26,037 bases of DNA, taken from a virus. The position numbers were made by a program, and so were the translations under genes. The stretch covers positions 1 to 26,037 of the IMG/VR virus record IMGVR_UViG_3300042988_002243; one strand, written 5' to 3'. Shown in pieces: positions 1,009 through 1,153 of the stretch. How positions within the stretch are numbered: position 1 is the first letter of the stretch; every line of letters begins with the position of its first letter. Below the pieces are notes generated by a model, which had not been told where the DNA came from, did not search any database, and saw only the letters and a list, made by a program, of their open reading frames with translations.

Positions 1009-1153
1009 GAATAAAGCAAGTTGTCATTGCAGTTTATTAAGGCTTTTGCTCTACCAACTGAGCTATCCCCCGATAAATGGCCGGGGGAATACGATTCGAA
1101 CGTATGACCCAAAGCTCCGGTATAATTGTATGCCCTAACTGTAAGCTTTATTC
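1009..1153 (-). ncRNA. Y-RNA-like RNA 4 with a circularly permuted tRNA domain
   Basis: This is the fourth and last element of the cluster. The ends pair as GAATAAAGC / GCTTTATTC. Inside are the cluster-wide strands CTTACAGTT..GGCATACA (5') and CTGCAATGACaACTTG (3'). The insert reads, in transcription order: 3' strand of an anticodon stem (GCTTT), variable loop, T-arm (ATACG-TTCGAAT-CGTAT), acceptor 3' strand TCCCCCG, G, CCA, a 5-nt linker, acceptor 5' strand CGGGGGA, TA, D-arm (GCTC-AGTTGGTA-GAGC), anticodon-stem 5' strand (AAAGC). This is a complete tRNA fold rearranged, with the acceptor stem closed into a hairpin and the anticodon loop opened onto the long stem. That matches the architecture I recall for YrlA-type bacterial Y RNAs. 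A permuted tRNA gene is the main alternative. Confidence 0.7.

What the first reader, a model, noticed from the sequence alone, without database searches (positions are those of the whole stretch)
1009..1153. Circularly permuted tRNA fold in RNA 4
All tRNA parts are present and pair well, but the order is anticodon 3' strand, T-arm, acceptor 3' strand with G-CCA, 5-nt linker, acceptor 5' strand, D-arm, anticodon 5' strand. The anticodon loop opens onto the conserved stem. Permuted tRNA genes are known from some algae and archaea and are not expected in phages. The same order is what I recall for the tRNA-mimic of YrlA Y RNAs.
Basis: partly seen in the sequence, partly recalled or inferred. Interest (0 to 1): 0.8.

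Follow-up and report, generated by a model that had tools for sequence, protein, structure and literature searches.

The report
Phage Y RNA with permuted tRNA-mimic
This viral stretch encodes four small RNAs next to a gene for a distant relative of the Ro60 RNA-binding protein, and one of them carries a rearranged but complete-looking tRNA shape on the stem that probably holds it to that protein; the shape is known from bacterial Y RNAs, while this branch of phage Ro60 genes with mixed tRNA copies looks new.

Summary
On the minus strand, 1153-1009 folds into a T-arm, a perfect 7-bp acceptor stem with G-CCA, a 5-nt linker, a D-arm and an anticodon stem whose loop opens onto a two-helix stem. 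The order is circularly permuted. It is not a permuted tRNA gene.

RNA 4 is the last of four tandem RNAs that share the same stem (9-bp helix, 5/5 loop, 5+3-bp helix). Two others carry tRNA domains in normal order with the acceptor stem lost.

About 540 nt past RNA 4 lies the cut-off start of a Ro60-like protein. Its full relatives miss Pfam's TROVE model, but their profile and predicted fold match Ro60 best. In 20 array regions (the window plus 19 relatives) I found 44 such RNAs in 18: 13 permuted, 17 normal, 14 other. Permuted acceptor stems covary, and some are capped by tetraloops, which argues against a released tRNA.

Phage Y RNAs and permuted YrlA are already known. What looks new is the divergent Ro60 branch with its own stem signature, and arrays showing tRNA folds cut open at three places. 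Function (adaptor or decoy) is inferred.

The parts
1009..1153 (-). RNA 4: Y-like RNA; outer helix, UUACA/AACUU internal loop, inner helix, permuted tRNA-mimic domain
   Evidence: Fold; stem score 33 against 0 of 868 shuffled and 0 of 2910 unrelated sites at 33 or more; Rfam YrlA 31.3 bits
1089..1105 (-). T-arm of RNA 4 (5 bp, loop UUCGAAU)
1078..1088 (-). Acceptor 3' strand UCCCCCG followed by G-CCA
1073..1077 (-). 5-nt linker UUUAU that closes the acceptor end
   Evidence: similar linker UCCAUCUAU (against GCCAUUUAU) in Rhizobium phage TM30
1066..1072 (-). Acceptor 5' strand CGGGGGA (7/7 pairs)
1048..1063 (-). D-arm of RNA 4 (4 bp, loop with GG)
1174..1317 (-). RNA 3: same stem, tRNA domain in normal order (anticodon loop CUGAUAA), acceptor only 2/7 paired
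   Evidence: tRNA 50.6 bits, model 7-64; z -4.01
1341..1445 (-). RNA 2: same stem, hairpins instead of a tRNA domain
   Evidence: z -4.31
1463..1588 (-). RNA 1: same stem, tRNA domain in normal order (anticodon loop CUUAUAA), acceptor 2/7 paired
   Evidence: (tRNA 34.1 bits, model 8-63); the free-energy fold of the tRNA part is weak (z -0.88)
972..995 (-). Intrinsic-terminator-like hairpin with U-run just after RNA 4
   Evidence: 2 terminator-like sites in the region against 1.3 expected, so the site alone is weak
497..757 (-). 86-aa protein, possibly ubiquitin-like/beta-grasp; relatives lie beside the Ro60-like gene in L004, L131 and LR756511
   Evidence: fold inconclusive
3..464 (-). First 154 residues of a Ro60-like protein, cut by the window edge
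   Evidence: 57% identity to residues 11-157 of L004's 524-aa protein; that family matches Ro60 by profile and fold

Best explanation
RNA 4 is a phage-encoded Y RNA. Its two-helix stem with the UUACA/AACUU loop is the handle for the phage's own Ro60-like protein, encoded just downstream on the same strand. On that handle sits a YrlA-type tRNA-mimic: T-arm, acceptor and D-arm in permuted order, with the acceptor end closed by a short linker and the anticodon stem running into the handle. Since the mimic has no free 3' end, it cannot be charged as it stands. I propose that it presents the elbow and acceptor faces of a tRNA to tRNA-handling enzymes (modification enzymes, RNases, or host PNPase as in RYPER) and so recruits or gates them at Ro60. 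The sister RNAs present the anticodon and elbow faces instead. Shown: sequence, fold, shared stem, linkage to the Ro60-like gene, conservation across phages. Inferred: transcription, Ro60 binding and the recruiting role. My odds: about 0.9 that it is a Y RNA with a tRNA-mimic, about 0.5 for recruiter or gate, about 0.3 for decoy.
For: Permuted order and pairing. YrlA is Rfam's best match. The domain is 83.6% identical over 67 nt to an RNA beside the TROVE gene of Rhizobium phage TM30, and 80.3% over 71 nt to one in Klebsiella phage KP13-16. Four tandem RNAs share one stem geometry and score 33-37; no site reached 33 among 868 shuffled or 2910 unrelated sites. The neighbouring protein's family matches Ro60/TROVE chains best by profile (E 3.5e-8 to 1.1e-5) and by predicted fold (Foldseek ranks 1-13 all Ro60; Z 19.8, 418 residues, rmsd 3.8). 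44 like RNAs lie in 18 of 20 array regions, 13 of them permuted, with 3 to 5 different standard pair types at each acceptor position. YrlA's tRNA-like domain, its modification by DusA and TruB and the RYPER complex are described in PMC8394870 (passages).
Against: Rfam score is below the gathering cut-off and covers only model positions 23-85 of 114, so the handle does not match the YrlA handle. The window's Ro60-like ORF is truncated, so its vWA half is seen only in relatives. No expression or binding data exist for this phage. RNA 1 folds no better than shuffles (z -0.88, 38 of 200 as good). None of 10 related phage records has an RNase_PH/PNPase domain of its own, so a RYPER-like role would need the host enzyme. 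Units were chosen by pairing, so their pairing percentages are inflated; only the shuffled and unrelated controls are fair.
Confidence: 0.65

Rival explanations
1. Decoy: the array is a set of uncharged tRNA look-alikes that soak up host tRNA-targeting nucleases (anticodon nucleases, toxin RNases), with Ro60 protecting the RNAs.
For: Anticodon loops keep U33 in 14 of 17 normal-order and 8 of 9 permuted units with an anticodon arm, although the acceptor is lost (4 or fewer of 7 pairs) in 7 of 17 normal-order units. Anticodons differ between units. Hughes et al. suggest that YrlA might competitively inhibit an anticodon nuclease (PMC7790460, passages).
Against: The same paper reports that YrlA is not cut by the nuclease. 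RNA 4 itself has no anticodon loop. Detection needed a paired anticodon stem, and U33 could be inherited from recent tRNA ancestry.
Confidence: 0.3
2. A true permuted tRNA gene: the RNA is cut and re-ligated at the anticodon loop and cut at the linker, giving mature tRNA-Arg(UCG).
For: G-CCA sits exactly at 73-76, the open loop halves CUU...CGGA would make a normal CUUCGGA loop, and the rotated sequence is called tRNA-Arg(tcg). RtcB is present in the phage of L131, 1 of 10 records.
Against: Permuted relatives have linkers such as UUCG, GCAA and GUAA that cap the acceptor stem; only 3 of 13 keep GCCA. 9 of 13 keep a whole anticodon arm and are opened at the variable loop instead. The window's RNA 1 and RNA 3 pair only 2 of 7 acceptor positions.
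Confidence: 0.04
3. Debris: rearranged tRNA gene fragments without function.
For: Phage tRNA arrays recombine often (general knowledge); RNA 1's tRNA part folds weakly.
Against: Same stem and loop signature in 44 units of 18 regions, covarying acceptor pairs, linkage to a Ro60-like gene.
Confidence: 0.03

Closest known systems
YrlA (Salmonella Y RNA, Rfam RF02553; structure 6CU1)
   Same: Permuted order T-arm, acceptor, D-arm on a paired 5'/3' handle; acceptor end closed by a loop; gene beside a Ro60 gene
   Different: The handle's sequence is outside the Rfam match; 31.3 bits against a gathering score of 69; lies in a four-RNA phage array with normal-order tRNA domains
Y RNA array of Rhizobium phage RHph_TM30 (TROVE gene)
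   Same: Array beside a Ro60 gene; holds permuted and normal-order tRNA domains; the domain of one copy is 83.6% identical to RNA 4's
   Different: Ro60 is recognised by Pfam TROVE (E 2.8e-13); the handle signature is GUUGCGA, 8 copies, none on the window's minus strand
Ro60 / Rsr / phage phiLo Ro60 (9l5y), for the neighbouring protein
   Same: HEAT-repeat ring plus vWA with DxSGSM; Z 17.9-19.8 over 416-441 residues
   Different: 12-15% identity in those alignments; 0 of 19 members match Pfam TROVE at E 0.1 and 3 match vWA_Ro60
Listeria phage CKA15 abundant RNAs near an Rsr-like gene (PMC12282133, passages)
   Same: Highly transcribed small RNAs within 2 kb upstream of an Rsr-like gene, proposed there as Y RNAs
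   Different: The authors leave identity open; my scan of 45 kb of the related phage P100 found neither this Ro60 profile nor a permuted domain
Permuted tRNA genes of algae and archaea
   Same: 3' half precedes 5' half (recalled)
   Different: No sign here of release of a mature tRNA; acceptor ends capped in relatives

Membership tests
Bacterial/phage Y RNA (broad sense) | Encoded beside a Ro60-type gene | tested here: met
   Ro60-like ORF 3-464(-), 57% identical to a protein whose family matches Ro60 by profile and fold
Bacterial/phage Y RNA (broad sense) | Paired 5' and 3' ends forming a handle with a conserved internal loop | tested here: met
Bacterial/phage Y RNA (broad sense) | Binds Ro60 | not testable with these tools
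   needs a binding assay
YrlA (Rfam RF02553) | Permuted T-acceptor-D tRNA-like domain | tested here: met
YrlA (Rfam RF02553) | Reaches Rfam's gathering score (69 bits) | tested here: not met
   31.3 bits; copies beside the TROVE gene of Rhizobium phage also fail, 37.3 and 36.2. So I do not file it as a member of RF02553, only as working like one
YrlA (Rfam RF02553) | YrlA handle sequence (model 1-22, 86-114) | tested here: not met
   match limited to model 23-85
Ro60 / TROVE protein (the neighbour's family) | HEAT-ring plus vWA fold | tested here: met
   model pLDDT 82; made from L004's full-length relative, not the cut window ORF
Ro60 / TROVE protein (the neighbour's family) | Pfam TROVE cut-off | tested here: not met
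   0 of 19 members at E 0.1; hence 'Ro60-like', a divergent branch
Permuted tRNA gene | 3' half encoded before 5' half, intact arms | tested here: met
Permuted tRNA gene | Processed to a mature tRNA | not testable with these tools
   capped acceptors in relatives argue against
Ubiquitin-like protein (ORF 497-757) | Beta-grasp fold | tested here: inconclusive
   Foldseek best E 0.47, VIA Z at most 4.4, top rows mostly Ubl/PB1

The most novel reading that the evidence does not exclude
A divergent phage Ro60 branch carries a modular display of tRNA mimics. One fixed Ro60 handle (YAC/ACUY loop, UACAUG after the inner helix) bears tRNA folds cut open at three places (acceptor end, anticodon loop, variable loop), so that a single phage shows several faces and anticodons of tRNA, none able to be charged as it stands, as baits or recruiters in a conflict over tRNA with the host.
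Probability: 0.25. Interest if true: 0.8.

Novelty: new variant of a known kind. Interest (0 to 1): 0.55.

Why it matters
Ro60 and Y RNAs are found from people to bacteria, yet what the tRNA-mimic part does is still open. Arrays in which evolution has kept one handle and re-cut the tRNA fold in different ways are natural experiments: comparing which faces survive should tell which enzyme is being imitated for. They also point to a Ro60 branch that current annotation misses.

Tried and rejected
Normal-order tRNA across 1009-1153: none. Protein-coding reading: the 87-aa TTG ORF 894-1157(-) runs through the RNA and looks like translated tRNA arms; not pursued. TROVE in the window's own record by Pfam: none, and none in L004's record; the sequence profile and fold found what Pfam missed. 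First DNA patterns: of 6 loci from the gapped pattern, only L004 was real by eye. The ungapped pattern returned 120 stretches; those I looked at (one search printed the ones with a candidate 3' element) seemed chance, and I used the set as an unrelated control. A genome-contig scan gave one hit, L149, a WWE3 MAG contig with the same coordinates and the same printed residues as L130. RNA ligase and RtcB as a general partner: RtcB in 1 of 10 records, RNA_ligase over its cut-off in 1 of 10. The 86-aa neighbour as ubiquitin-like: inconclusive. Listeria phage P100 as an expressed example: nothing found in 45 kb of it. The partner-swap test of the stem is biased, since units were picked by pairing, and I rely instead.

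Rows dropped before counts: L132 (same match as L131), L129 (same contig as L004) and L149 (as L130) as duplicates; L142 (gene cut by the locus end) was scanned but not. L130's permuted unit (4154-4295) scored 21, under the cut of 29, and is not among the 13. Some of the 13 permuted calls rest on a 3/4 D-stem (for example L138, L131). At the cut of 29, 4 of 868 shuffled sites and 6 of 2910 unrelated sites also pass.

Papers: Chen 2014, Wang 2018, Sim 2018 and Sim 2020 are not held; what I say of them is recalled or seen only in other papers' text. No held paper found by my searches was seen to describe normal-order and permuted tRNA domains in one Y RNA array; I read passages of six of the listed papers only, and that does not show that none exists.

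Full report
What was claimed.

What is there. The claim holds base for base on the minus strand. T-arm 5/5, acceptor 7/7 with G-CCA behind it, linker UUUAU, D-arm 4/4 and anticodon stem 5/5 are all present, and the minimum-energy fold shows the T-arm, acceptor, D-arm and outer stem (z -3.15). A scan for this arrangement at full pairing hits once in the window and once in 600 shuffled windows. ARAGORN sees no tRNA in the encoded order and a tRNA-Arg(UCG) once the halves are rotated; the rotation result follows almost by construction and adds little. Rfam's best family for the region is YrlA, 31.3 bits, E 0.0032, below its gathering score.

The surroundings. RNA 4 is the last of four RNAs on the minus strand: 1588-1463, 1445-1341, 1317-1174 and 1153-1009. 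All four fold with a 9-bp outer helix, a 5/5 internal loop and an inner helix of about 5+3 bp, and a U-run hairpin at 995-972 follows RNA 4. On a stem score, the four sites reach 33 to 37. They are the only sites at 29 or more in the window (67 minus-strand and 52 plus-strand sites). No site reached 33 among 868 in shuffled regions or 2910 in unrelated loci. RNA 1 and RNA 3 carry tRNA domains in normal order with canonical anticodon loops (CUUAUAA, CUGAUAA), but only 2 of 7 acceptor pairs each; RNA 2 has hairpins instead. The window is phage: a major head protein and a portal protein are recognised, and its record is a 26,037-base virus contig.

The neighbour. The minus-strand ORF that runs off the window's edge (464 to 3) begins a protein 57% identical to the first part of a 524-aa protein in L004, a 173-kb viral contig where the same order is found: RNA array, small protein, large protein. 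That protein has no hit to Pfam TROVE. A profile of 19 relatives matches Ro60/TROVE chains best in the PDB. A model of the L004 protein (pLDDT 82) has Ro60 structures at Foldseek ranks 1-13, including the Ro60 of Thermus phage phiLo, and Z 17.9 to 19.8 over 416-441 residues against the ten Ro60 entries listed, next to Z 14.9 for single vWA domains. So the gene is a divergent Ro60.

Relatives. I examined the array regions of 20 loci (the window, L004, L131, L130, L133-L141, L143-L148 and the 595-kb phage LR756511 = L150). 44 units passed the cut of 29 in 18 of the 20 (none in L139 and L145): 13 permuted, 17 normal, 6 with a T-arm only, 8 without. 11 regions hold a permuted unit, 12 a normal one, 7 both. 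The handle reads, roughly, 5' [7-9 bp] YAC-UG [about 8 bp] GCU-UACAUG ... AGC [8 bp] CG-ACUY [7-9 bp] 3'. Only (A/U)UACA and ACU were imposed by the search; the UG, YAC and Y were not. The acceptor stems of the 13 permuted units show 3 to 5 standard pair types at each position, with two non-standard cells in all. Their linkers include UUCG, GCAA and GUAA; 3 of 13 begin GCCA. 9 of 13 keep a whole anticodon arm and are opened at the variable loop; the window's RNA 4 is opened at the anticodon loop, as in YrlA.

Known phages. Rhizobium phage RHph_TM30 has an annotated TROVE gene with an array of RNAs marked by GUUGCGA (8 copies). It holds permuted domains and one normal-order tRNA domain without acceptor. 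One permuted copy is 83.6% identical over 67 nt to RNA 4's domain. So mixing of orders is not special to the divergent branch, while the handle is.

How it most likely works. The handle is bound by the phage's Ro60. The closed acceptor cannot be charged. The tRNA face recruits or gates tRNA-handling enzymes, as the YrlA domain is reported to do (PMC8394870 passages: DusA and TruB substrates, PNPase tethering in RYPER). None of 10 related phage records has an RNase_PH domain, so the host's PNPase would have to serve. A decoy role against anticodon nucleases is the main rival. It is supported by conserved U33 in 22 of 26 anticodon loops (14 of 17 normal-order and 8 of 9 permuted) while acceptors decay in 7 of 17 normal-order units. 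It was raised for YrlA by Hughes et al. 2020 (PMC7790460, passages). Binding, transcription and role are inferred, not shown.

Evidence of expression elsewhere. In Listeria phage CKA15 three highly abundant RNAs lie within 2 kb upstream of an Rsr-like gene and were proposed to be Y RNAs (PMC12282133, passages). My profile found nothing in 45 kb of the related phage P100, so this is precedent only.

Novelty. Y RNAs with permuted tRNA domains are known, in bacteria and in phages. New here, as far as the held papers show (searches; passages of six papers read), are the Ro60 branch that Pfam misses, its handle signature, and arrays that show tRNA folds cut at three points.

Noticed in passing
window 497-757 (-); L004 3763-4050; L131 4721-4957; L150 3161-3397: A small protein family ending in RP..xFG sits with the Ro60-like gene in 4 loci of the 21 searched; the predicted fold is vaguely ubiquitin/PB1-like but the match is weak. 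L004 and LR756511 also have a JAB-like ORF (Pfam hit in L004; by motif only in LR756511) and L004 a ThiF/E1-like one, hinting at a ubiquitin-like pathway in these phages.
   Followed up: partly
window - strand about 1604-1598 and 1330-1324; L004 and L148 arrays: CUUUGAAA, which resembles the boxA antitermination element (recalled), stands just upstream of RNA 1 and RNA 3; all five counted units of L004 have CUUUGAA or CUUUGAC there. Possibly antitermination or processing; not tested.
   Followed up: no
L130 4154-4295: Permuted unit with a complete anticodon arm CUCUAAA (anticodon CUA, would read UAG) capped by UUCG.
   Followed up: no
L131 record, 193767-196052: The phage of L131 encodes an RtcB-like RNA ligase (E 1.3e-42 in an 801-aa frame matched in two pieces, perhaps split by an insert such as an intein), the only one of 10 records.
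   Followed up: no
window 6987-9113 (-): 708-aa protein with a LAGLIDADG endonuclease domain (E 6.6e-18) in front of a methyltransferase-looking C-terminus.
   Followed up: no
window 18856-26033 (-): Three tandem large proteins with a near-identical stretch near the N-terminus (GRGYFKKGTGDSLIING...PEW), likely paralogous tail or spike proteins with swapped C-termini.
   Followed up: no
window 824-876: A 17-bp inverted repeat (88% complementary) with A/T runs between the RNA array and ORF 497-757; could be a second terminator between them.
   Followed up: no
L001 3981-4087 and about 3761 (-): In Klebsiella phage KP13-16 the gene beside two YrlA-like permuted domains is DUF2828 plus DUF7788, not TROVE: perhaps another Ro60-like branch.
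   Followed up: partly
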